Source: a virus. Taken from it: a DNA stretch of 64,000 nt. Made by a program: the position numbers and the translations under genes. This document shows, one piece after another, positions 1,605-14,630 of this stretch. How positions within the stretch are numbered: the stretch's first letter is position 1; each line of letters starts with the position of its first letter. The notes beneath the pieces are model-generated. The model searched no databases and was not told where the DNA came from. It saw only the letters and a program-made list of their open reading frames with translations. Where the stretch lies: IMG/VR virus record IMGVR_UViG_3300022752_004319, positions 62,001 to 126,000 of that record. One strand, written 5' to 3'.

Positions 1605-4361
1605 ATGATCACAACAGAAGAAATCAAAAGTTTTTTAGAGGGTAACGATCCCGAAGAACATATTGTCGCACTTGAGTTCGATTATGCAAGTGAGGATATC
1701 TACAAAATCAAGGAAATCCCCGGTAAAGGTAAACAAATTGTCAGGGATACTTTTATTCCGTTTTGTTGGGTTGGTGATTTACGTAAATTAAACTTTTATG
1801 GTGGATCGAAAGCTCTTCAGAAAGAGGCTATGTCCAAACATAAAATTCTCATTGAAAAACTAGAAACTCACGATAATGAAAGATTAACCCAAGGTCTTAC
1901 GTTCTTGGTGAAATCCTTAAAAGGATATAGAAATCTTATTCAGTTTTTTCGTGATGGTGGTATAGACCCTTGGGGTGATGCGGCAAAAGAACAATTTCTA
2001 TTATTACCACCAGTTGAACAATATTTGATTCAAAAAGAAAAAAGATTATTCAAGGGATATGAAGAATACAACGATATCACTCGATTTGTGTTTGACTTAG
2101 AGACGACCGCACTCGATCCAAAAGATGGTCGCATTTTTATGATTGGTATGAAGACAAATAAAGGTTTTCATCAAGTTATTGAATGTCTCACAGAAGAACA
2201 AGAAAAACAAGGATTGATTGAGTTCTTCAGGACAATACATAAAGTTAATCCAAGTATCATTGGTGGTTACAATAGTTTTAACTTTGACTGGCAATGGATC
2301 ATTGAAAGATCAAAAGCTCTTGGTTTGGATATGAAGAAGATTTGTATCACTCTCAATCCAGAAAGACATTTCTCACAAAAAGAACAATTGCTCAAACTTG
2401 GTAATGAGGTTGAGAAATTCAATCAGATTGGAATGTGGGGTTATAATGTAATTGATATTCTTCATGCTGTAAGACGAGCTCAATCAATCAATTCAAACAT
2501 TAAAAGTGCTGGTCTTAAGTATATCACACAATACTTGGAACTAGAAAGTCCAAATCGTATCTACATAGATCATCAAAACATCGGTAAGATGTACGAAAAA
2601 AAAGAGGAGTATTGGTTAAATATTAACAATGGAAAATATAAAAAAGCTGATATTCCTGAGTTTGCTAATTTAGATCAAAGATTTCCATCAGTTTATGAAA
2701 AAGTTACTGGAGATAAAATTGTTGAGATGTATCTTGACGATGACTTGGATGAAACTTTACGTGTTGATGAAGAGTTCAATCAAGGCTCTTTTCTTCTAGC
2801 ATCACTTGTACCAACGACTTACGAAAGAGTTTCCACAATGGGAACCGCGACGTTATGGAAAATGATTATGCTCGCTTGGTCATACAAACACAACTTAGCA
2901 ATTCCAAAAAAACAAGAAAAAAAGGATTTTGTGGGTGGATTATCACGTCTTATTAAAGTGGGTTATTCTACCAATGTTCTTAAACTCGACTTTAGTTCAC
3001 TTTACCCTTCTATTCAACTTGTACACGAAGTTTTTCCTGATTGTGATGTGACCGGGGTGCTCAGAGGATTTTTGAAGTTTTTCCGTGATTCTCGTATATT
3101 ATACAAACAACTTGCGGAAGAATTACACGAGACAGATCCAAAAAAATCAAAATCATACGATAGAAAACAATTACCTATCAAAATCTTTATCAATAGTATG
3201 TTTGGTGCCCTGTCAGCTCCTCATGTCTTTGCTTGGGGTGATATGTATATGGGAGAACAAATTACCTGTACTGGTAGACAATACCTTCGTCAAATGACAA
3301 AGTTTTTTATGGCACGTGGTTATGAACCACTTGTGATGGATACGGACGGTATTAACTTCTCAGCGCCGAACGGAGTTGAAGATCGAGTTTATATTGGTCG
3401 AGGTAACAATTGGAAAGTTAAAAAGGGTAAAGAGTATAAGGGCGCTGCAGCTGATATTGCTGAGTATAATGATATTTTTATGCGTGGTGAGATGGCGTTG
3501 GAGAACGATGGTGTGTGGCCTAGTTGTATAAACATCGCCAGAAAAAACTACGCACTTCTCACAGAAAAAGGAAAAATCAAGTTGGTTGGGAACACTATTA
3601 AATCAAAAAAATTACCGGGTTATATCGAGGAGTTTCTTGATAGAGGAATTAAATTATTACTTCAAGGTAACGGAAAAGAATTTGTCGAGTTTTATTATGA
3701 ATATCTGACAAAGATCTACAATATGGAAATTCCTTTAGTTAAAGTAGCTCAAAGAGGTAAAATAAAACAAAGTATCTCTGACTATGAAAAAAGATGTAAA
3801 CAAACAACTAAGGCGGGTAATTTGATGGCAAGACAAGCACATATGGAACTTGTAATTCAAAATGGGATGAGTGTGAATTTGGGTGATGTTATTTATTACG
3901 TCAACAATGGAACCAAAATTTCTCAAGGAGATGTGTCCAAAAAGGGTGATACTATTACATTAAATTGTTATTTGGTAAGTCAAAGTGACATCGATAATAA
4001 TCCAAATTTAACAGGTGTTTATAATGTTCCTCGAGCAATCTCAGTATTCAATAAACGTATTGAACCACTTTTGGTTGTGTTTAAACCAGAAGTAAGGGAT
4101 ATTTTGTTGGTCACCAATCCAGAAAAAAGAGAGTTTTTCACAACTTTACAATGTCAACTTGTAAATGGACAACCGTTCAATGAAACCGATCAAGATAATT
4201 TACAAAGAGATGTTTTGGAAATTACCGACCAAGAATTGGAGTATTGGAAAAAAAGGGGTCTTGATCCAAACTACATTTACGATCAAGCTGAAGATGGGTG
4301 GGAAGAGGAATTAAACTACCAAAGTTTAACACCATCAGAAGAAAGTATGTACCAATTGTGA
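1605..4361 (+). CDS. Family B DNA polymerase (T4 gp43-like)
   Basis: This is the replicative DNA polymerase with a 3'-5' proofreading domain; 918 residues compares with about 898 in T4. Exo I shows D164 and E166 (FVFDLETT), and Exo II follows as NSFNFDW. Polymerase motif A is LDFSSLYPS with D462, motif B is KIFINSMFG (about 526-534), and motif C is DTDG with D579 and D581. All catalytic carboxylates expected for proofreading and synthesis are present. The start is the first ATG after the terminator and a promoter-like motif; there is no Shine-Dalgarno sequence. The gene lies about 36 kb from the gp32/uvsX/gp41 cluster, among adhesin genes. Its 3' end overlaps a convergent small gene by 46 nt. 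Confidence 0.97.
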   Translation: MITTEEIKSFLEGNDPEEHIVALEFDYASEDIYKIKEIPGKGKQIVRDTFIPFCWVGDLRKLNFYGGSKALQKEAMSKHKILIEKLETHDNERLTQGLTFLVKSLKGYRNLIQFFRDGGIDPWGDAAKEQFLLLPPVEQYLIQKEKRLFKGYEEYNDITRFVFDLETTALDPKDGRIFMIGMKTNKGFHQVIECLTEEQEKQGLIEFFRTIHKVNPSIIGGYNSFNFDWQWIIERSKALGLDMKKICITLNPERHFSQKEQLLKLGNEVEKFNQIGMWGYNVIDILHAVRRAQSINSNIKSAGLKYITQYLELESPNRIYIDHQNIGKMYEKKEEYWLNINNGKYKKADIPEFANLDQRFPSVYEKVTGDKIVEMYLDDDLDETLRVDEEFNQGSFLLASLVPTTYERVSTMGTATLWKMIMLAWSYKHNLAIPKKQEKKDFVGGLSRLIKVGYSTNVLKLDFSSLYPSIQLVHEVFPDCDVTGVLRGFLKFFRDSRILYKQLAEELHETDPKKSKSYDRKQLPIKIFINSMFGALSAPHVFAWGDMYMGEQITCTGRQYLRQMTKFFMARGYEPLVMDTDGINFSAPNGVEDRVYIGRGNNWKVKKGKEYKGAAADIAEYNDIFMRGEMALENDGVWPSCINIARKNYALLTEKGKIKLVGNTIKSKKLPGYIEEFLDRGIKLLLQGNGKEFVEFYYEYLTKIYNMEIPLVKVAQRGKIKQSISDYEKRCKQTTKAGNLMARQAHMELVIQNGMSVNLGDVIYYVNNGTKISQGDVSKKGDTITLNCYLVSQSDIDNNPNLTGVYNVPRAISVFNKRIEPLLVVFKPEVRDILLVTNPEKREFFTTLQCQLVNGQPFNETDQDNLQRDVLEITDQELEYWKKRGLDPNYIYDQAEDGWEEELNYQSLTPSEESMYQL

Positions 4362-4652: not shown

Positions 4653-5765
4653 TTACACTGTTGTAATCGGTACTGGAAAAGCTCTGTATTGCATTTGTTT
4701 ATTTAGATTTTCAGCAATTTTTGCTTCTCTTTCCATTATAAATTCTGGTCTTAATCTTTCAAGTCTTTTTGTTAATTCTTCTAATAAAATTTGTTTTTCA
4801 TCTTTAGCCTCCGTGGATAGTGATGTATAATCCATTTGAAGTTCACTATCTGGTGTTTTAAGATTTCCACTAAATTTACCTCTTACACGAGCTAAAGTTT
4901 CTTTAGCATAAGCTGTTAACCACCTTCTTACCCATTGTTGAGCAGGATCATTCAGATCTTGCCATGATAGTGCATCTAATGGGATATCGGAGGGTAATTT
5001 TACAATATCGGGATTATCCTTCAGACATTGATCCCTATCCTTATCGTAGGTATCATAATACCAATACCATACTTTTCCTCTATTAAGTTCTGAATTACCA
5101 AAGTCAAATTTACCACCGGGTGTATTATAAAGCATAATCGCTTTTTTTCCGTTAGGAAGTGCTGTAACTCTATATTGTAGATCTGGTTGTATGATTCTTC
5201 TTTTTATGTTGACATCTTGAAGTCGAGCCAAAACATCATAAGATGAAAAGAAAAAGTAACCACCACCACCCCAACCAGGTTGAGCATACCCACCTGGTCC
5301 ACCTATGCCTGGGCCACCTAAGGCCCCGAACGACCAAGGGTCAAAAAGTATGTTACTTTCTTCAGCTGGAGAAAACCATAAAAGTTCATTCAATTCACGT
5401 CCAGCAGGTATTTCGTATATTTGTTGATTCGCCTGTAATTGAATGTAATCTTTTTTTAACACCCACGGTCCTGAATTTTGTAGACCAACAATTTTGGAAT
5501 AAGCGTAAGTATATTGAGTTTCCCAATCTAGTGATCTTCTGACCAATGCATTTGCCACTGATTGTGTTTCTAGGTTTAAACCATATAGGGATGTCCATTG
5601 AGATTCAATCAACCAATCTTGCACATACTGGGTGTAATCACCAATTGATAATTCCATAAGTGAATCCATCATTTCGTCTGTAAGTTCTACAGAACGTAAA
5701 GGTGCTCCTAAGAGGTTATAAATCCTCTTGTACATTCTACTTCTATCTGGTTCAGCTATTATCAT
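4653..5765 (-). CDS. Putative neck / head-tail connector protein
   Basis: The 370-residue product has an alpha-helical N-terminus (residues 1-60), an 'IPAGRELNELLW' beta segment near residue 120, a Gly-rich loop (about 148-170), and a helical basic C-terminal half containing RVRGKFSG and a charged coiled segment (about 320-345). The pattern resembles a conserved virion protein of marine T4-like phages that I associate with the neck, but T4 gp13 homology cannot be shown by eye. Its ATG overlaps the stop of the upstream adhesin gene (TAATG), which implies translational coupling. Proximity to the other probable neck genes (12202, 14678) supports a connector role. Confidence 0.6.
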   Translation of the reverse strand: MIIAEPDRSRMYKRIYNLLGAPLRSVELTDEMMDSLMELSIGDYTQYVQDWLIESQWTSLYGLNLETQSVANALVRRSLDWETQYTYAYSKIVGLQNSGPWVLKKDYIQLQANQQIYEIPAGRELNELLWFSPAEESNILFDPWSFGALGGPGIGGPGGYAQPGWGGGGYFFFSSYDVLARLQDVNIKRRIIQPDLQYRVTALPNGKKAIMLYNTPGGKFDFGNSELNRGKVWYWYYDTYDKDRDQCLKDNPDIVKLPSDIPLDALSWQDLNDPAQQWVRRWLTAYAKETLARVRGKFSGNLKTPDSELQMDYTSLSTEAKDEKQILLEELTKRLERLRPEFIMEREAKIAENLNKQMQYRAFPVPITTV

Positions 5766-8533
5766 TACGTGATATTTACTGACCCATTATAAAACCCTAC
5801 GTTCAATGTTACAAGTCCGACAGGTGGAGGAGCATCCACGCCTATTTCAAGACCATACTCTAGGGCATTATATCCACAAAATACATTTAATGGTGACAAT
5901 CCAGCTTGAAGAGTATTAAATCTCAATTTAAATAGTTCTCCACCTTCAAAGCGAAAACTATTTGCACTGCTCCAGACCATAGCAATAGCTTGACCACTTC
6001 CACAATTCTGTGTAAAACCAGTACAATTGTCTTGGGGTGATGTGAATCCACTCCAAGTATATGTTATTCGAGGGTTTGCACAACTTAACTTAGTTGGGTC
6101 ATAAGTTATTTTCATACCCACAACCGTCATATCAATAGGTTCTTTTACTGTAAAAATGACAGGAACTTCAACAATTGAATTTACTTGCGCAGATACTTTT
6201 CCAATTGTTACAACATTATAACATAACTGTCCCCATCGTGGTTGTTTACTTGGTGTATTCACCCAAGTTGAATTTGCACCCGTGTTAAAGAATGCAGGTT
6301 GGGTTGCAATACTAGAAACACACCAATCACTTAAATCTTGATTAAATAATGTAGCATTTCTAAACATACTTGTCATAGTCATAGTTTCTATTTCGGAAAA
6401 ATCAAAATATCCAATATCTTGATTAAATGCCGTACAACCGTTGAACATATTTCCAAGGTTTAACCCTAAGCTGGCTTTCTTTTCAAATTCCCATCCAACA
6501 ATTGGCTGATTAAATATCGTGCACCCTGAAAATATACTAGATTGATTTCCTAATGTTAGTGTTATACCACTAAATATAGGTGAATTAAAAGATTGGGCAT
6601 TAGTTAAAAAACTATTGATGATTACACTGAAGCGAGTACTATTAGGTTTTAAATTCCAATTAGAAAGATTTGAATTAAATTGATAACAATTTTGAAACAT
6701 CCCACTAAGGGACTCACAAGAATTCATACTCCAACCACTTACATCCCCATTGAATACAAAACAGTCTTTAAACATATTAGTTGTTGATGTAACTTTACCC
6801 ATATCCCACTCATTTAATCTATTAATTGTAGTCAGACTACGACATCCATTGAAAAAATTATTTAGGACAGTTCCCAATATTGGTAAATCAGGACAATCTA
6901 CAGAAATCAAATTAAAACAATTATTAAATTGACCAGTTATAGTTGCACCACCATTTTGAAACAAGTTAACGTTTCCCCATTGTTTAATCTTTTTTAACAT
7001 CAATCGTGAAGTTGGAACGAAAGAAAATGACCATAAATTCAGTGTACCATTTATTACAATGGTATACGTACCATCCGCCGCATAAGTGTGTTGTGCGTTT
7101 ATTGAATTAACCGCTTGAACATTGCCACTTTGACCATCACCCCAACTTACTGTAAAATTATAAGAACCTGTATTCACTAGTGGTAAATAAAATGTACGTA
7201 AACTTGCATTAGCCTCAACCTCAATTATGAATGAATCTGGTGATTCAGCACGTGTTGGCGATACTGTAACTGTGGGTGTTACTGTAGGAGAGACTGATGG
7301 TGATATAGTTGGTGTTGGTGTTATATCTGGTGTTACTGGTGGTGTTGCCCCAAAAGATCTAGAAGTTGTCGGTGATGGTGTATTGGTTGGACTTACAGAA
7401 TTTGTTACCGTTGGTGTTGATGTTGGTTGTGGTGTTGGTTGATTTGGACAATTACTAAAAGTCAAATTAAGATTTCCTTGACAATAATTTGGTTCTTGGT
7501 TGATATACCCACCAGTGTAGTTTACTAGGGTTGCCGCAGAATATTGACCAGAAGGACTAGGAGGTCCTACTATTTTATTAATAAACGTATAAAGAACACC
7601 TGTAGAGGGATCTTGAAAGCCATAACCATTGTCAATATCAGAATTACTAGTTTTTAAGACATAAACATACTTTGCGGTATAAGAACCACCAGACACTGTA
7701 GAACAACAATCTTGAAAAATATTATAAGTAAAATTACTTGTAATTGTTGGTGTAGGCGTTGCAAATGGTGTTGGTTGTACATTAGAACAGTTTTGTATTT
7801 GGGAAATAAATGAACTAGATCCTGCAGAAAAAAATGTTGCATAAATGGGTGTAGAAGGTTCTTGAAGTTGAACATCCATAAACCCTTGCCATCTATTACC
7901 AAAAAACGATATAGGTTGATTTGTTGTTAAATCAAATATTCGATCTCCAGCCACAAGCTGACTCAAAGGTTTTGTTGTGTATCCTACAGGATTTCCATCG
8001 CTTCCCACAAAATTTCGAACCGCAGTACAAAGGAGCCCTGATTGTGTGTATCCTTGGGCAGGGTATTGAGGTCTGAAAACGTTGTATTTGGTTACACCTG
8101 AAGTTGGTGTTATTGTTGGTGTCAAGGTTGGAGTTGTTGTTACTTGAGGTGTTACATTTGAATTTCTGGTTGATGTTGGACTATTTGTTGGATTTGGTGT
8201 AGACCCTAAAGATTTTGTCGGTGTTGCTGTAACAGTATTAGAAGGTGTGTTAGGTGGTGTGGTGGTATTTGTTGGTGTGTTAGATGGTGTTGATCTAGGT
8301 GTACTAGTTGGTAGTGCGGTTCTAGAGGCTGTTAATGGTGGAAACGAATAAGAATCAGTGAATGTTTGTTGTTCTTCCGCTGTTTTTAATGTCCCATCGA
8401 TATACCAAATATTGATAGTTTCACCTGGATTTACCAAATGATTTGGTATAATCATATTATCAGAACATCTTCTATAACTTATAGTACTAATTTTAGATGA
8501 ATTATTAGTTAATGTGGTTTTTTTACAAAACAT
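5765..8533 (-). CDS. Multidomain adhesin: TPT linkers, PKD, DUF285 repeats, cohesin-like C-terminus
   Basis: The product has 922 residues. Reading N to C: a short head (1-65); a Thr/Pro linker (70-145); a module with KPLSQLVAGD and FGNRW (150-250) that recurs in the protease gene at 12726; a Cys-containing beta module (about 265-365); a second TPT linker (370-435); a PKD-like domain with VSWGDG and an HTY strand (about 445-510); a DUF285/BspA-type block with repeated 'MF..C..FN.d.s.W' units (about 550-750); and a cohesin-like beta domain (about 775-922, 'MKITYDPTKLSC'). Such combinations are typical of Bacteroidetes surface proteins. I infer a virion-displayed adhesin. No secretion signal is visible, which fits a tail component. 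A promoter-like motif lies 17 nt upstream. Confidence 0.85.
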   Translation of the reverse strand: MFCKKTTLTNNSSKISTISYRRCSDNMIIPNHLVNPGETINIWYIDGTLKTAEEQQTFTDSYSFPPLTASRTALPTSTPRSTPSNTPTNTTTPPNTPSNTVTATPTKSLGSTPNPTNSPTSTRNSNVTPQVTTTPTLTPTITPTSGVTKYNVFRPQYPAQGYTQSGLLCTAVRNFVGSDGNPVGYTTKPLSQLVAGDRIFDLTTNQPISFFGNRWQGFMDVQLQEPSTPIYATFFSAGSSSFISQIQNCSNVQPTPFATPTPTITSNFTYNIFQDCCSTVSGGSYTAKYVYVLKTSNSDIDNGYGFQDPSTGVLYTFINKIVGPPSPSGQYSAATLVNYTGGYINQEPNYCQGNLNLTFSNCPNQPTPQPTSTPTVTNSVSPTNTPSPTTSRSFGATPPVTPDITPTPTISPSVSPTVTPTVTVSPTRAESPDSFIIEVEANASLRTFYLPLVNTGSYNFTVSWGDGQSGNVQAVNSINAQHTYAADGTYTIVINGTLNLWSFSFVPTSRLMLKKIKQWGNVNLFQNGGATITGQFNNCFNLISVDCPDLPILGTVLNNFFNGCRSLTTINRLNEWDMGKVTSTTNMFKDCFVFNGDVSGWSMNSCESLSGMFQNCYQFNSNLSNWNLKPNSTRFSVIINSFLTNAQSFNSPIFSGITLTLGNQSSIFSGCTIFNQPIVGWEFEKKASLGLNLGNMFNGCTAFNQDIGYFDFSEIETMTMTSMFRNATLFNQDLSDWCVSSIATQPAFFNTGANSTWVNTPSKQPRWGQLCYNVVTIGKVSAQVNSIVEVPVIFTVKEPIDMTVVGMKITYDPTKLSCANPRITYTWSGFTSPQDNCTGFTQNCGSGQAIAMVWSSANSFRFEGGELFKLRFNTLQAGLSPLNVFCGYNALEYGLEIGVDAPPPVGLVTLNVGFYNGSVNIT

Positions 8534-8567: not shown

Positions 8568-9257
8568 TTATAATCTATCAGCTACGTACTCCCAATCGAC
8601 AACTCTCCAAAAATTTTTTATGTATTCGTCTCTTCTGTTTTGATATTTGAGGTAATATGCGTGTTCCCATACATCCAAACCAAGAATTGGTTTTCCACCA
8701 TCTTTAACAAAACCCATCATTGGATTGTCTTGGTTTGGTGTTGTTATAATTTTTAATTTACCATTATCTTTAAGTATCAACCAAACCCAACCAGAACCAA
8801 ATACAGTTTTTGCCGCCTCGTCAAACTTCTTTTTGAATTCCTTAAGGGTTCCAAAGTTTGAATTTATTCTCGATTCAAGTTTTGTTGGTATTTTTGATGC
8901 GTTAGGTGTCATCATTTCCCAAAATAAAGAATGATTATATGCTCCACCAGCATTATCACGAATTAATTTTTCGTTTTCTTTGACCGATGAAACAATCTCC
9001 TCTAACGACATATTTTCATATCGTTTTCCTTTAGTTGCAAGATTAAGTTTGTCCACATATCCCTTGTAATGTTTTGTATAGTGAACATTCATCGTTGTTG
9101 GATCGATAAACGCTTTTAGTGATGTAAATGAATATGGTAGTGGTTCAACAACAACATTACCGTGTTTAATCTTGGATTTTTTTTGTTCTTCTATTAATCT
9201 TCTACGTTCTTCAATTTTCTGTTCAATTAACTCAATTCTATTTTCCAAATATTTCAT
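8568..9257 (-). CDS. Fe/Mn-family superoxide dismutase, Mn-type signature
   Basis: The product would convert superoxide to H2O2 and O2. Aligning by eye with E. coli SodA/SodB, all four metal ligands are present: H59 (VHYTKHY), H109 (YNHSLFW), D195 and H199 (LDVWEHAYY). The Gly in NAGGAYNH and the Gln in PNQDNPMM are the arrangement of Mn or cambialistic enzymes rather than Fe-type. The FGSGWVWL motif is intact. At 229 residues it is longer than the usual 195-205 because of a charged, probably coiled-coil N-terminal extension (residues 1-35). It lies 36 nt after the SNF2-type helicase on the same strand with no clear promoter of its own, so it is probably cotranscribed. No signal peptide is seen, so it should be cytoplasmic. 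I infer protection of the infected cell against oxidative stress. Confidence 0.95.
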   Translation of the reverse strand: MKYLENRIELIEQKIEERRRLIEEQKKSKIKHGNVVVEPLPYSFTSLKAFIDPTTMNVHYTKHYKGYVDKLNLATKGKRYENMSLEEIVSSVKENEKLIRDNAGGAYNHSLFWEMMTPNASKIPTKLESRINSNFGTLKEFKKKFDEAAKTVFGSGWVWLILKDNGKLKIITTPNQDNPMMGFVKDGGKPILGLDVWEHAYYLKYQNRRDEYIKNFWRVVDWEYVADRL

Positions 9258-9293: not shown

Positions 9294-12152
9294 TCAATTT
9301 CTCTTTTGGTTGATAGATTGAAGTATATTTTCAAGTGCATCTCCTTCAAACAACATTGTATCACCCATAACAGTATTAATAATTCTTTTTTTCTTATCTA
9401 GAATGTCATAGATAATTCCTTCGATTGTATTTTCGAATAGAGGGTAATAAACTACTACTGTATTTTTTTGTCCATATCGGTATGCTCTATCTTCTGCTTG
9501 AGAGTGGTCTGATGGTAGAAACGACAAATCGTTCATAATAACAGTTTCGGCGGCAGTTAAAGTTAAACCAACACCCGCGGCTTTGATATTACCAACAAAG
9601 ACTTTAACTTTATCATCGGTTTGGAATTTATCCACAGCATCTTGTCTTTCTCCTTTTGGTGTTGATCCATCAAGTTTTACCGCGACTTTTTTGAAGTGAT
9701 TATAAATTGCGTTAAGAGAATCAGTAAAGTTACAAAAGATGATAACTTTTTTATCTTGATCTAAAATATTTTCACACAGTTCTATTGTTTGTGCAACTTT
9801 TTCATTTGCAATAATTTGTCTGACTTTTGCGATTTTGGAAAATTGCATAGTTAAAGAATTTGACTCACCTCCCTTATCATACCATTCGTAATATTCCCCC
9901 ATAACTTCTTCGTATTCCCGAGATTTCAATCGCATATAAATTGGAGAAATTATTTTTTCAGGTAAGTCTAGTACGTCGTTTTTTAGTCTTCGTAACACAA
10001 AAGGTTTTGTTCTTTCATAAAGTTCTTCCAAATTTGACGCACCACTTACATTCCATATTTTTCTATTACCAGCACGGAACTGATACCCATTACAATAACG
10101 CTTGACATAAGCCATCCAATTCTGAGCAACATTGCAGTCAACTAAATTGAGTAGATTGAAATAATTTATTGGTCGAGATGTCACGGGAGTTCCGGTTAAC
10201 AACCAAGTTCTTTGTGACATTTTACTAATGTCATTTACAAGTTTGGTTCTCTGTGCTTGAACATTACAAATCGCGTGGGCTTCATCAACTATTACCAAAT
10301 CAAATTTTGCGTCACGTATTATTGATTCCGAATCTTTTTCTAATGTGTGGAAATTTTTCAAAATATCGTAGTTGATAATAACGTAATCAGCATCTTCCCA
10401 TTTTTTACCTTCGACAATAGATATGGATTTATCAGAATAATTTTCAATTTCTCTTTTCCAATTTATTTTGAGTGATGCAGGACAAATAACGAGGGTTTTT
10501 TTGGATTGTGCTTCAAGTGACGCAACAACAGCGGTGGTTGTATTGTGTGTAACAATACAATGTTGAGCTACGTATAATTTATCTGGAGCATCTACTGAAA
10601 TACAGGTACAATAATCCTCACCTTGTTTTTCAATTTTACTAATGTATCTACCTGTTCGATATTTTTGCGGCTCGTTGTATCTTTCTGATTTCCTTTTTAA
10701 TCTAAATGGATTCATACCTTTAGGTAGTTTTATGTTCAATCGGTAGGATGGTCTACATTCAATTCTTTCCCCGTTTTTTTTATAAAAACTTTTTCTCTTT
10801 CTTTTACGCACAATTCCGCCCAAAGTATGAACAATTTCACACAAATCATCACAAAGTTTCTCAGATACTGTTGAAAATTCTGTACCACCAAAATTTCCAT
10901 TTTTAGATAACATACAATAACCATCAGTGTCCATCAATCCTTGGAGTATTGCAAGACGATTATTTATAGAGGTATATTTGTATATGTCAGGTATAAATTT
11001 AGTATGTGACCGAGTATGAGATAGTGATAGATTTTTTAATGGTTCACCGATAGAAATGGAACAGGTTCGTTTATTATCGTATTGTTTATTTTCTTTAATC
11101 TTAAAATTACCAAATAATTCATCGAAATCATCTCGATGAGTTTCGAACTTACATGAAATACTTTGGATATGACCGTCTCCTAAAATTAGACCTAATAGAT
11201 AGGGGTCTATTGGTAGTTCATCGTTATTTTCAAACTCAATTGGTTCTACTATGGGTATTTGCCATTTGTTAGCCCCGTTAGACCCTCGATAGTGAGTGTT
11301 TATTGAGTATGTTCTAAAATTATTGTATCCACGACCTTGATCTTGTATAATATGATTTTCATACATTTGTTTTGTGGATAATGTAAGAGTTTTCTTCAAC
11401 CTATTGTTATTGGAGTTTTTACCATGATTAGAAGAAGACACTGACCAAAGATGTGACTCATCGGTAAAGATAAAAAATCCATCGTTGAATGTGACTTTAT
11501 ATGTTTCTCGTATACCCTGAGGAAAAACACCAATCACATTAACTGGTTTTCCGTTTGAGCCAATGACTTTGTCACCAATCATAATATCACCCATTTTTTT
11601 GGTTCCATTTGGTGTGTATATCAAAGTTTGGTTTGACAACGCTTTACCGAGTCCCAAATCATCCGCTAAAATATACTTTTTGTTTTCACACAGAGTTTTT
11701 ACACCTTCTTTTTGATGTTCGAGTAATGGTCGATGGGAGTATTTCTCAAAATCAATTTCTACGTTTTTGATTTTATTATCTTTGATTACCGCAGCTTTTG
11801 GTATCCAAATATCATGTAAACCTTGATTTTCAAAATAATATCCCCACACGTGATAAGCGGTTTCTTTTTCAACTAAAAGTTTTTCTATCCAAATTTGCGT
11901 CGGTACTTCTATAAACATTTTTTCATTTGCAATTTTACTCGCAAAATATGTGTCTAATTGTACCCATTTTTTTGCAACCTTTGGTTCTCTTTTGTGATAT
12001 TTAATCACATATTCGGTTTGAGTTGCGTTAGGAAAAAATTTAGGATTTGAATCCCTTTTGTGTTTTAATTTGAGAATAAAGTTATTCGCACCTTCATAAC
12101 GATCTATAATATCTAAGGCTTGATTTTCTCTTGCGTTTAATTGACTATCCAA
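9294..12152 (-). CDS. SNF2-family DNA helicase/translocase containing an intein
   Basis: This is a superfamily 2 SNF2-like ATPase. The extein shows Walker A DDLGLGK|TTT, split between residues 170 and 538, then DEAH (VIVDEAHAI), the 'LLTGTP' motif III region, and the C-terminal helicase motifs AAGVGLTLTAAE and QAEDRAYRYGQ. Removing the 367-residue intein leaves about 585 residues, a normal size for small phage SNF2 proteins. These may remodel DNA-protein complexes or aid recombination and replication restart; T4 UvsW is a functional comparison only. The N-terminal 140 residues are not recognised. It opens a minus-strand transcription unit from the divergent region 12153-12201, followed by SOD. 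If splicing failed, the ATP site would be destroyed. Confidence 0.93.
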   Translation of the reverse strand: MDSQLNARENQALDIIDRYEGANNFILKLKHKRDSNPKFFPNATQTEYVIKYHKREPKVAKKWVQLDTYFASKIANEKMFIEVPTQIWIEKLLVEKETAYHVWGYYFENQGLHDIWIPKAAVIKDNKIKNVEIDFEKYSHRPLLEHQKEGVKTLCENKKYILADDLGLGKALSNQTLIYTPNGTKKMGDIMIGDKVIGSNGKPVNVIGVFPQGIRETYKVTFNDGFFIFTDESHLWSVSSSNHGKNSNNNRLKKTLTLSTKQMYENHIIQDQGRGYNNFRTYSINTHYRGSNGANKWQIPIVEPIEFENNDELPIDPYLLGLILGDGHIQSISCKFETHRDDFDELFGNFKIKENKQYDNKRTCSISIGEPLKNLSLSHTRSHTKFIPDIYKYTSINNRLAILQGLMDTDGYCMLSKNGNFGGTEFSTVSEKLCDDLCEIVHTLGGIVRKRKRKSFYKKNGERIECRPSYRLNIKLPKGMNPFRLKRKSERYNEPQKYRTGRYISKIEKQGEDYCTCISVDAPDKLYVAQHCIVTHNTTTAVVASLEAQSKKTLVICPASLKINWKREIENYSDKSISIVEGKKWEDADYVIINYDILKNFHTLEKDSESIIRDAKFDLVIVDEAHAICNVQAQRTKLVNDISKMSQRTWLLTGTPVTSRPINYFNLLNLVDCNVAQNWMAYVKRYCNGYQFRAGNRKIWNVSGASNLEELYERTKPFVLRRLKNDVLDLPEKIISPIYMRLKSREYEEVMGEYYEWYDKGGESNSLTMQFSKIAKVRQIIANEKVAQTIELCENILDQDKKVIIFCNFTDSLNAIYNHFKKVAVKLDGSTPKGERQDAVDKFQTDDKVKVFVGNIKAAGVGLTLTAAETVIMNDLSFLPSDHSQAEDRAYRYGQKNTVVVYYPLFENTIEGIIYDILDKKKRIINTVMGDTMLFEGDALENILQSINQKRN
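10542..11642 (-). mobile_element. Intein with LAGLIDADG endonuclease in the SNF2 Walker A motif (class 3 signature)
   Basis: It covers residues 171-537 of the host protein. It begins with Ala (ALSNQTLIYT) instead of the usual Cys/Ser and ends IVTHN, followed by Thr+1. Block B has Trp236 in SHLWSV, block F has Cys517 in CISVDAPDKLYV, and the +1 residue is Thr: this Trp-Cys-Thr set is the published signature of class 3 inteins, which splice without a residue-1 nucleophile. The endonuclease domain has two LAGLIDADG-like helices, YLLGLILGDG (about 318-327) and AILQGLMDTDG (about 401-411), with acidic residues intact, so homing could still be active. Insertion exactly at the GK|T of Walker A is a classic conserved insertion point. 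Confidence 0.9.
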
Positions 12153-12165
12153 AACAAAAATAAAT

Positions 12166-12173
12166 TAAATATA
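12166..12173 (-). promoter_or_regulatory. TATATTTA motif, SNF2/SOD unit
   Basis: On the minus strand TATATTTA lies 13 nt before the helicase ATG, back to back with the plus-strand motif at 12185 in a 49-bp divergent intergenic region. Confidence 0.4.
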
Positions 12174-12184
12174 ATAATATTATG

Positions 12185-12193
12185 AATATTTAT
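12185..12193 (+). promoter_or_regulatory. AATATTTAT motif, 12202 gene
   Basis: AATATTTAT ends 8 nt before the ATG. If it is a -10/-7 type element, the transcript would be leaderless or nearly so. Confidence 0.45.
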
Positions 12194-12201
12194 CAAGAAG
12201 T

Positions 12202-12717
12202 ATGGCACAAAATCAAGTTCCAATCACAAGATTAGGTAAATTTTTCGGTCAAGAAGATTTCGATTTGGATGTTAGTATGGGTCGTGAATGGCTCGATGGT
12301 GATATGAATTTTACCATTGTTGTCTATCGCGTAAACAAACAAAAAACAAATCAAGACGATGTTTATGGTGAGGCGGTACCTCAATCCATAGAGTTTTTAC
12401 CACCAATATCAGTAAACGCTTATTTGCAAATTATGCAACCAGATATGGCTTTCTTGGGTAATTCTAAGGTTATACAAAACGAACCAGGTAATATCAAATT
12501 CGCTATTTACCAAAAAGATTTGGACGACCTACAAGTTTCCATTAGTTTGGGTGATTACATCGGTTATTGGATTACCGAAAATCAAGTAAGATATTATTCA
12601 GTTGTTGATAAGGGGATACCCAATTATGACAACAAACATACTTATGCAGGATATAAACCTTTCTATGTCAGTTACATTGCAACACCAGTAACTGCTAACG
12701 AATTTATGGGGATTTAA
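12202..12717 (+). CDS. Small virion-type protein, possible neck component
   Basis: The 171-residue product has no membrane segment. It is rich in beta-strand-type sequence with a central 'PGNIKFAIYQKDLDDLQVS' segment and a Tyr-rich C-terminal third (YYSVVDKGIPNYDN). I do not recognise the family. It opens the plus-strand unit that leads to the protease-adhesin and the probable neck/tail-terminator protein, and a putative neck gene lies on the opposite strand nearby. A gp14-like neck role is therefore conceivable from position alone. The start is set by the promoter-like motif directly upstream, and the next gene begins 8 nt after the stop. Confidence 0.7.
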   Translation: MAQNQVPITRLGKFFGQEDFDLDVSMGREWLDGDMNFTIVVYRVNKQKTNQDDVYGEAVPQSIEFLPPISVNAYLQIMQPDMAFLGNSKVIQNEPGNIKFAIYQKDLDDLQVSISLGDYIGYWITENQVRYYSVVDKGIPNYDNKHTYAGYKPFYVSYIATPVTANEFMGI

Positions 12718-12725
12718 GATACACG

Positions 12726-14630
12726 ATGAAAACTAAAATAATAAAAGATCTAATTAAAAAATTGTTATCCGAAAATTCAGATACAAACATTATTGGTATT
12801 TCATTCGGAAATAAAATTGTAGATGGAAAGTTTACTTCAGAGTTGGGTATTACATTTTATGTCAATGAAAAAATAAAGTATGAAGATGTAAATCCTGACT
12901 TTTTAATTCCTGAAAAAATTGAATATATGGGGTATGAATTTTCAACGGATGTGTCTACTGTGACAACTCAATTGCTATCAACGTGTCCATCTGATTTTTA
13001 CTCTTGGGAGACAACACCACCCCCAAATAGAGACCTTATTCCTATTTTATCAGGTGGTACTTCAATAATAAATGGTACTTTGGGTGGATTAGTAATTGAT
13101 GATACTAGTTATTCTTTAGCAGGGTTAACAAACGGACATGTTGTTGGATGGCAATTATTAAATTCTGATGTCAATCCATATTTTCCAGTTCAAGGTTTAT
13201 ACCAAAGTACAATATATCAGGGTGAAGTTGAAGATAATCAAGTTTTAGGAATTGTAAAGAATTATTATCCTGCCGAAAATGATCCAGCCAACACATTGAT
13301 TGATGCAGCACTTGTAACAATACCAAGAGAATTGGTAGATTTTGAATCTTCTTATCGTCAGATTGGTCTTACAGGATGGACACAACCTATGGATTTTGCA
13401 ACCACGGAAGAAATCGATGATTTGATTTTTACAAAAGCAAATTTGTATAGCTCGGGAAGAACGACTGGTGCAAAAGGTGAAGGTGAAATGAAGTTAGTGT
13501 GTATGGCAACTAACTATTTTGCTCCTGGTGCTGGTAAAACAATTGATGATTTAATAGTGTATGTTGCTAGTGCTACTACAACACCAATTGGTACTGTATG
13601 CCCATTTCCTGTTTGGTTGGGTGATAGTGGTTCTATAGTATCCGCTGACATTAATGGAACTCGTAAAATAATTGGATTAATCGCAGTGTTTGTTACTTTC
13701 AATAACTTAGACGCTTGTGGTGTTTGTAGAATTGACAATATTCGAAATCTTCTCAAGATTTCACCTTGGACTGGACAAACTGATGTTAATTTTTCAAATT
13801 CAGCTATTACTGAAACTATTTTAACAACTAATAACTATTCTGATCCATATGTTGTCTCAGATTCTAAAACTTTTTGGCAGAGGGGAATTCTACAACCGAC
13901 CGTAACCCCAACAATAACCCCTACACCGACCACTTCCCAATTTTCTACCCCGCAACCAACACCGACACCTTCTTTTACACAAACACCAACAAGAACCTCA
14001 GACCCGAATTGTTTTCCACAAATAAATGCAACTTGTTACACTTGGTCATTACAACTATTACCATTGAATTTCTCTTATTTTTTCTTACCTACAATTGTTG
14101 CATGGGCTAAATATACTGATTGTTATGGAACACCTATTATTAAATTAGTAGAAATTGCCAATAATCAAATTTCATACATATGTTCAAAAGAACGACCTGT
14201 GATCGTTCAAAGTAGAAACGAAGCCAATAACATTTCGAGTGTATCCTTTATTAGTCAATACATAAATATTACCCAACTCTCACCATGTGGTTCATACTGT
14301 GTTAATGTTACTCCAACACCTACATCTACACCTGTAAATTATTTGATTTACGGTTCTTTTAGTCCTATTGTCGGATCTACCACGGCACTTGCCGCTTGTA
14401 ATGCTTTAACCAATGAAACCGCGGTAGTTTATGGATACATTACCAAACCTTTGAGTCAATTGGGTGCTGGAGATGTAATATATGATATAAACACAAATTT
14501 ACCGAAAGAAACTTTCGGAAATAGATATCGTGCTTTTTCAGAATCACCACTACCATTAATAAAATATGTAGCATATTGGCAGGTGAGTGGATCATTAATT
14601 ACTAGTGTTGTTAATTGTAATGAACTTTAA
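12726..14630 (+). CDS. Trypsin-like (Nal1-type) serine protease fused to tail-adhesin modules
   Basis: The 634-residue product has an N-terminal 'GISFGNK..DG..TSELGITFYVNEK' segment (22-50), typical of Nal1-like/S1-fold bacterial peptidases. A trypsin-fold domain follows with His138 (TNGHV), Asp193 (DAALV) and Ser301 in GDSGS, plus SSGRTTGAKGEG (about 242-253). The triad order and spacing fit chymotrypsin-fold enzymes. After about residue 390 come a TPT linker, a Cys module ending CGSYC (about 432-533) shared with the genes at 1 and 14678, and a C-terminal module (about 537-634) with TKPLSQLGAGD and FGNRY, shared with the 922-residue adhesin. There is no signal peptide. I infer a virion-associated protease that either trims host surface proteins or matures tail fibres. 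Confidence 0.85.
   Translation: MKTKIIKDLIKKLLSENSDTNIIGISFGNKIVDGKFTSELGITFYVNEKIKYEDVNPDFLIPEKIEYMGYEFSTDVSTVTTQLLSTCPSDFYSWETTPPPNRDLIPILSGGTSIINGTLGGLVIDDTSYSLAGLTNGHVVGWQLLNSDVNPYFPVQGLYQSTIYQGEVEDNQVLGIVKNYYPAENDPANTLIDAALVTIPRELVDFESSYRQIGLTGWTQPMDFATTEEIDDLIFTKANLYSSGRTTGAKGEGEMKLVCMATNYFAPGAGKTIDDLIVYVASATTTPIGTVCPFPVWLGDSGSIVSADINGTRKIIGLIAVFVTFNNLDACGVCRIDNIRNLLKISPWTGQTDVNFSNSAITETILTTNNYSDPYVVSDSKTFWQRGILQPTVTPTITPTPTTSQFSTPQPTPTPSFTQTPTRTSDPNCFPQINATCYTWSLQLLPLNFSYFFLPTIVAWAKYTDCYGTPIIKLVEIANNQISYICSKERPVIVQSRNEANNISSVSFISQYINITQLSPCGSYCVNVTPTPTSTPVNYLIYGSFSPIVGSTTALAACNALTNETAVVYGYITKPLSQLGAGDVIYDINTNLPKETFGNRYRAFSESPLPLIKYVAYWQVSGSLITSVVNCNEL

What the first reader, a model, noticed from the sequence alone, without database searches (positions are those of the whole stretch)
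10542..11642. Class 3-type intein (Trp-Cys-Thr) splitting the Walker A of a SNF2 helicase
Seen: the intein starts with Ala instead of Cys/Ser, has Trp in block B (SHLWSV), Cys in block F (CISVDAPD) and Thr at +1, and two LAGLIDADG-like helices. Known: class 3 inteins are a small group that splice from an internal block F Cys. Inference: the endonuclease is still active, given intact acidic residues, so this may be a recently acquired element in a T4-like phage SNF2 gene.
Basis: partly seen in the sequence, partly recalled or inferred. Interest (0 to 1): 0.78.

Follow-up and report, generated by a model that had tools for sequence, protein, structure and literature searches.

The report
Class 3 intein in phage SNF2 helicase
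A T4-like phage's DNA-remodelling helicase gene carries a self-splicing, gene-homing protein insert of a known but unusual mechanistic type (class 3) exactly in its ATP-binding loop, and near-identical relatives without it or with swapped versions show that it belongs to a mobile, recombining family.

Summary
Confirmed, with one correction. The 952-aa minus-strand gene at 9294-12152 is a SNF2 helicase. It is interrupted between Lys and Thr of Walker A (GLGK|T) by a 367-aa intein at 10542-11642, with Ala1, His64 (B:10), Trp66 (B:12), Cys347 (F:4), Thr365-His366-Asn367 (G:5-G:7), Thr+1 and two intact LAGLIDADG motifs. The published "T" of Trp-Cys-Thr is Thr G:5, not Thr+1; both are present. Intein-free alleles with about 98% identical upstream DNA lack exactly this insert. 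Across 46 distinct SNF2-site inteins, F:4 Cys, B:10 His, G:5 Thr, Asn, Thr+1 and both catalytic Asp are invariant, while residue 1 is A/G/F/C/L/M/S (16 changes on the tree), as a class 3 mechanism predicts. AlphaFold2 plus Foldseek give a Hint domain with a LAGLIDADG endonuclease. Purifying selection, transfer between diverged phages and allele replacement support a mobile family. "Recently acquired" is not supported for the window's own clade, where intein and extein divergence match. New member of a known kind: class 3 inteins at P-loop K|T, and one in a Deinococcus Snf2 protein, are published. A Trp-to-Phe clade, mosaic alleles and a splicing-dead free-standing derivative are more interesting. 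Splicing and cleavage remain untested.

The parts
9294..12152 (-). SNF2-family helicase gene with in-frame intein (952 aa precursor; 585 aa after splicing)
   Evidence: ORF; Pfam PF00176 and PF00271; intein-free homologues of about 585-600 aa
11643..12152 (-). N-extein, 170 aa, ending ...ILADDLGLGK (Walker A up to Lys)
   Evidence: alignment with intein-free alleles
10542..11642 (-). Class 3-type intein, 367 aa: Hint splicing domain with inserted LAGLIDADG homing endonuclease
   Evidence: sequence, family alignment, exact absence in L010/L021, AF2 model and Foldseek
11445..11447 (-). Trp66 (B:12), two residues after His64 (B:10)
   Evidence: alignment with class 3 structure 6rix; 38/46 Trp, 8/46 Phe
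11175..11177 (-). Asp156, catalytic acidic residue of LAGLIDADG motif 1 (LLGLILGDG)
   Evidence: 46/46 conserved
10923..10925 (-). Asp240, catalytic acidic residue of LAGLIDADG motif 2 (LQGLMDTDG)
   Evidence: 46/46 conserved
10602..10604 (-). Cys347 (F:4), presumed branch-point nucleophile
   Evidence: aligns with the block F Cys of 6rix; 46/46
10542..10550 (-). Thr365-His366-Asn367 (G:5-G:7), C-terminal splice junction
   Evidence: 46/46 conserved
9294..10541 (-). C-extein, 415 aa plus stop, starting TTTAVV (Thr+1 completes the GKT of Walker A)
   Evidence: alignment with intein-free alleles

Best explanation
It is a full-length class 3 intein: a Hint splicing domain with an inserted two-motif LAGLIDADG homing endonuclease, sitting between Lys and Thr of the Walker A loop of a SNF2 helicase of a T4-like phage. 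Inferred splicing: Cys347 (F:4), set up by His64 and Thr365, attacks the Lys(-1)-Ala1 bond to form an internal branched thioester; Thr+1 takes over the acyl chain; Asn367 cyclises and releases the intein; the restored GKTT P-loop gives a 67.7 kDa helicase. At the DNA level the endonuclease would cut intein-free SNF2 alleles at the Walker A codons and repair would copy the intein in. Shown here: anatomy, predicted fold, exact empty alleles, purifying selection, conservation pattern, and horizontal transfer and allele replacement in the family. Inferred: the chemistry and the DNA cleavage.
For: All class 3 signature residues are present. In 46 distinct inteins at this site, Cys F:4, His B:10, Thr G:5, His G:6, Asn G:7, Thr+1, Lys-1 and both catalytic Asp are 46/46, while residue 1 is 17A/10G/9F/5C/2L/2M/1S with 16 changes on the tree; F:4 has 0 changes in 49 class 3-type rows. 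Profile and fold match class 3 DnaB inteins 6rix and 6bs8 and the Hint+LAGLIDADG enzyme PI-SceI. Empty alleles L010 and L021. dN/dS window versus L005: intein 0.085 (splicing part 0.063, HEN 0.108), exteins 0.03-0.07. Transfer within the family: L134/L137 exteins 57% nt upstream while the intein is 92-98% nt from codon 140 on; L108/L111 exteins 69-72% aa, intein 95% aa.
Against: [quoted passage not shown] all data are sequence and a predicted model. Overall Hint similarity to class 1 gp41-1 is as high as to class 3 DnaB inteins. Five of 46 relatives have Cys1 and one Ser1, so position 1 alone does not exclude a class 1 route in them. Transfer and swap evidence comes from relatives, not from the window's own copy.
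Confidence: 0.9

Rival explanations
1. [quoted passage not shown]
For: Ala1 and a +1 nucleophile are compatible with both routes; sequence alone does not show which residue attacks.
Against: Cys F:4 is 46/46 and Thr G:5 46/46 while residue 1 drifts; the Trp B:12/Cys F:4/Thr G:5 triplet marks class 3 (PMC5222942; PMC5050341).
Confidence: 0.05
2. Splicing-dead or decaying intein, as in Arthrobacter Arth_1007: residues kept by chance, helicase not made.
For: No expression data; a splicing-dead free-standing derivative of the same family exists (L135/L136).
Against: Intact frame, all catalytic residues present, dN/dS 0.085 in the intein and 0.03-0.07 in the exteins against L005; the insert would otherwise destroy Walker A of a gene under strong purifying selection.
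Confidence: 0.04
3. Functional splicing element whose endonuclease no longer cuts (post-homing state), spread only by general recombination between phages.
For: Intein and extein divergence match between window and L005, so no recent homing is visible in this clade; mosaic alleles in the family point to general recombination.
Against: Both catalytic Asp intact in 46/46 and HEN dN/dS about 0.10; close relatives are polymorphic for presence.
Confidence: 0.25

Closest known systems
Deinococcus radiodurans Snf2 intein (Brace et al. 2010; known here through citations in PMC3196547 and PMC5222942, paper not held)
   Same: Class 3, SNF2-family host protein; its title reports detection of the block F branched intermediate
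   Different: Bacterial host; its sequence could not be fetched here, so site identity and relatedness were not tested
Class 3 DnaB inteins of mycobacteria (6rix, 6riy, 6bs8)
   Same: WCT residues align; Hint fold matches over about 70 residues at 1.1-1.3 A
   Different: Solved chains of 139-146 residues in DnaB without this endonuclease; 36-38% identity over the N-terminal part only
Class 3-type inteins in named phage helicases (Alice gp175, Papperlapapp helicase)
   Same: Inserted at GK|S or GK|T with Trp B:12, Cys F:4 and THN; about 33% identical over the whole intein
   Different: Distant; other phage groups and divergent helicases
gp41-1 intein (class 1)
   Same: Closest PDB sequence over the N-terminal Hint part
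   Different: Class 1; the top hit 6riz is an engineered C1A/F65W/D107C version, so the wild type has Cys1 and Asp at F:4 (PMC7664689)
PI-SceI (yeast VMA1 intein)
   Same: Whole-length fold match, Hint plus two-motif LAGLIDADG endonuclease (E=1.7e-19)
   Different: Class 1 (own knowledge), 15% identity

Membership tests
Class 3 intein | No required N-terminal nucleophile (residue 1 not Cys/Ser/Thr) | tested here: met
   Ala1; residue 1 drifts A/G/F/C/L/M/S in the family, 16 changes on the tree
Class 3 intein | Trp at B:12 | tested here: met
   Trp66, two residues after His64; aligns with the block B Trp of 6rix. 38 of 46 relatives Trp, 8 Phe
Class 3 intein | Cys at F:4 | tested here: met
   Cys347 aligns with the block F Cys of 6rix; 46 of 46
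Class 3 intein | Thr at G:5 | tested here: met
   Thr365 in VTHN; 46 of 46
Class 3 intein | Ser or Thr at +1 and Asn at G:7 | tested here: met
   Thr+1 and Asn367; 46 of 46
Class 3 intein | Splicing abolished when F:4 Cys is mutated; block F branched intermediate | not testable with these tools
   needs expression and mutagenesis
Class 3 intein | Groups with class 3 inteins in phylogeny | tested here: inconclusive
   Tree of the SNF2-site group with other class 3-type inteins was made, but without a proper class 1 set; the one gp41-1 row is short and on a long branch
LAGLIDADG homing endonuclease | Two LAGLIDADG motifs with catalytic acidic residues and matching fold | tested here: met
   Asp156 and Asp240, 46 of 46; Foldseek to PI-SceI and I-DmoI
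LAGLIDADG homing endonuclease | Cleaves the intein-free allele | not testable with these tools
   only indirect signs: empty alleles, transfer in the family, purifying selection
SNF2-family helicase (extein) | SNF2 ATPase and Helicase_C domains | tested here: met
   Pfam PF00176 1.3e-30, PF00271 1.4e-18; intein-free homologues of about 585-600 aa

The most novel reading that the evidence does not exclude
The SNF2-site class 3 inteins of T4-like environmental phages form a population that evolves by exchange of two separate cassettes, codons 1-65 (with the non-catalytic residue 1) and about 136-235 (first half of the endonuclease), by recombination between intein-bearing alleles. Intein types are then replaced in near-identical helicase genes without ordinary homing, which an occupied site should block.
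Probability: 0.4. Interest if true: 0.55.

Novelty: new member of a known kind. Interest (0 to 1): 0.38.

Why it matters
The element itself is expected biology: class 3 inteins and P-loop K|T insertion sites are known. Its family is useful as a natural experiment. Residue 1 varies freely while F:4 Cys never changes, which tests the class 3 mechanism by evolution. A Trp-to-Phe clade tests how necessary the signature Trp is. Empty, occupied and swapped alleles of almost the same gene would make intein homing, loss and recombination in phage populations measurable.

Tried and rejected
Bethlehem accession NC_009878 is not in the collection, so its DnaB intein could not be aligned. The three founding class 3 papers are not held. 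The genome-contig scan gave only L161, L162 and the class 1-type L163, not Deinococcus. 'Recently acquired' was rejected for this clade: window-L005 intein dS equals extein dS. The idea that Phe at B:12 is an ancestral link to class 1 gp41-1 was weakened: Phe arises twice inside Trp-bearing rows, though the root is uncertain. Assembly chimerism as the cause of swapped alleles was checked: L089=L090 over the whole intein and L083=L113 over 921 bases are identical between separate records, which argues against it for that pair; L101/L107 and L108/L112 were not checked that way on both sides. The Salmonella 'intein-containing helicase' (L165) did not give a comparable class 3 alignment.

Full report
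Observation. The minus-strand ORF 9294-12152 (TTG start, 952 aa) is a SNF2-family helicase interrupted by a 367-aa in-frame segment at 10542-11642. The break lies between Lys and Thr of Walker A: ILADDLGLGK|ALSNQT...CISVDAPDKLYVAQHCIVTHN|TTTAVV. In the intein's own numbering: Ala1, His64 (B:10), Trp66 (B:12), Asp156 and Asp240 of the two LAGLIDADG motifs, Cys347 (F:4), Thr365-His366-Asn367 (G:5-G:7), then Thr+1. In the literature it is Thr G:5 (PMC5222942; PMC5050341), with Ser/Thr+1 a further feature. Both are present. The predicted spliced product is 67.7 kDa.

Empty alleles. A scan of viral contigs with the whole protein gave 79 loci. Intein-bearing relatives are L002-L004 (96%), L005 (87%) and L006/L007/L009/L016 (56-59%); L008 is a partial one. 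Most others have an uninterrupted GLGK|T. L010 and L021 match window 11640-12717 at 98.0% and resume at 10544 with six bases of overlap; in L010 the last 36 bases upstream of the site equal the window's. The insert is therefore exact. Some close intein-free alleles carry changes at the site (GVGKTIT in L011/L015, GLGKTMT in L012-L014). Whether they resist homing is unknown.

Family. Nearly all readable ones are inserted after GK, most in SNF2-like helicases, others in other P-loop proteins. In 46 distinct SNF2-site inteins (under 98.5% identical to each other), His B:10, Cys F:4, Thr G:5, His G:6, Asn G:7, Lys-1, Thr+1, Asp156, Asp238 and Asp240 are all 46/46. Trp B:12 is 38 Trp, 8 Phe. Residue 1 is 17 Ala, 10 Gly, 9 Phe, 5 Cys, 2 Leu, 2 Met, 1 Ser, with 16 changes on the intein tree. 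On a tree with other class 3-type inteins, F:4 has no change and B:12 two. The loci were partly found by similarity to the window's intein, so the sample is not random; but the search patterns did not include block F or residue 1. Freedom at residue 1 with an unchanging F:4 Cys is what the class 3 mechanism predicts, and class 1, which needs a nucleophile at residue 1, does not.

Fold. An AlphaFold2 model from 35 of the family's own sequences has mean pLDDT 89.1 and pTM 0.88. Foldseek gives PI-SceI over the whole length (E=1.7e-19). For the Hint part it gives class 3 DnaB inteins (6rix, 6bs8; 1.1-1.3 A over about 70 residues) and gp41-1, and for the endonuclease part I-DmoI. The best sequence hit in PDB, 6riz, is an engineered gp41-1 with C1A/F65W/D107C; wild-type gp41-1 is class 1. 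So the overall resemblance of the Hint domain does not decide the class; the signature residues do (PMC7664689).

Selection and mobility. Window versus L005: dN/dS 0.072 (N-extein), 0.085 (intein), 0.029 (C-extein); inside the intein, splicing part 0.063 and endonuclease 0.108. dS of intein (1.33) and exteins (1.37-1.57) are about equal and near saturation, so the data do not support a recent arrival in this clade. It is either old with later losses, or was gained in parallel from close sources. In the wider family, intein and extein trees disagree. L134 and L137 have upstream exteins 57% identical in DNA but inteins 92-98% identical from about codon 140 on. L108 and L111 have exteins 69-72% and inteins 95% identical in protein.

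Swapped alleles. Some almost identical helicase genes carry different inteins: L083/L089 (flanks mostly 94-100% per 50 bases over some 2 kb, intein 78.5% aa, Phe1 against Gly1), L101/L107 (C-extein 100%, intein 85%, Gly1 against Leu1) and L108/L112 (exteins 90-99%, intein 77%, Phe1 against Ser1). The differences are concentrated in codons 1-65 and about 136-235. In L101/L107 synonymous differences are 0.48 and 0.34-0.36 there, against 0.00-0.05 elsewhere. Codon permutation reached the observed heterogeneity in 0 of 2000 runs for each of these pairs and for L132/L134. L083/L113 and L089/L090 are identical between separate records, which argues against one-off chimeric assembly for that pair. 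The pairs were picked after inspection and the number is small, so this is a lead, not a result. An occupied site should be immune to its own endonuclease, so such replacement more likely runs through general recombination, or through loss and re-invasion (inference).

Context. The window is 62001-126000 of a 131,753-base virus record. UvsX-like recombinase, SSB, DnaB-type helicase, exonuclease, NrdA/B, baseplate wedge proteins and a family B polymerase make it T4-like.

Known. Class 3 inteins shown to splice include Bethlehem DnaB, Dra Snf2 and Catera Gp206 (PMC3196547); 1701 were counted in 2020, 82.5% with LAGLIDADG motifs, with rare deviations at Trp (6.1%) (PMC7891396). The K|T P-loop site is called classic (PMC5050341). 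This is a new member of a known kind. The family's residue-1 drift, the Phe clade, mosaic alleles and a splicing-dead free-standing derivative are the parts worth following.

Noticed in passing
L135 about 1350-2504 and L136 about 2459-3613: Free-standing ORF derived from this intein family, with Cys F:4 replaced by Gly and the final Asn by Asp but both LAGLIDADG motifs kept, directly downstream of an intein-free SNF2 gene (GLGK|SLSS): an intein that seems to have become a stand-alone endonuclease gene. The two records are almost identical.
   Followed up: partly
L101, L107, L108, L119 (C-extein, helicase motif VI): A second, class 1-type intein (Cys1, VYDLSV in block F, HN|C) in motif VI (EDR|...|CYRIGQ) of the same SNF2 gene that carries the class 3-type intein in Walker A.
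   Followed up: partly
L083/L089, L101/L107, L108/L112, L132/L134: Mosaic intein alleles: divergence concentrated in codons 1-65 and/or about 136-235, high identity elsewhere.
   Followed up: partly
L006, L007, L009, L016, L109, L130, L132-L134, L137: Trp B:12 replaced by Phe with the rest of the class 3 signature intact.
   Followed up: partly
window 8568-9257 (-): Fe/Mn superoxide dismutase gene (Sod_Fe_C 3.9e-41, Sod_Fe_N 3.3e-20) next to the SNF2 gene in a phage genome.
   Followed up: no
window 5765-8533 (-) and 12726-14630 (+): Large proteins with Thr/Pro-rich repeat stretches (TPTPT type) on either side of the SNF2-SOD block.
   Followed up: no
L011, L015, L012-L014: Close intein-free alleles with amino acid changes right at the insertion site (GVGKTIT, GLGKTMT), possibly homing-resistant.
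   Followed up: no
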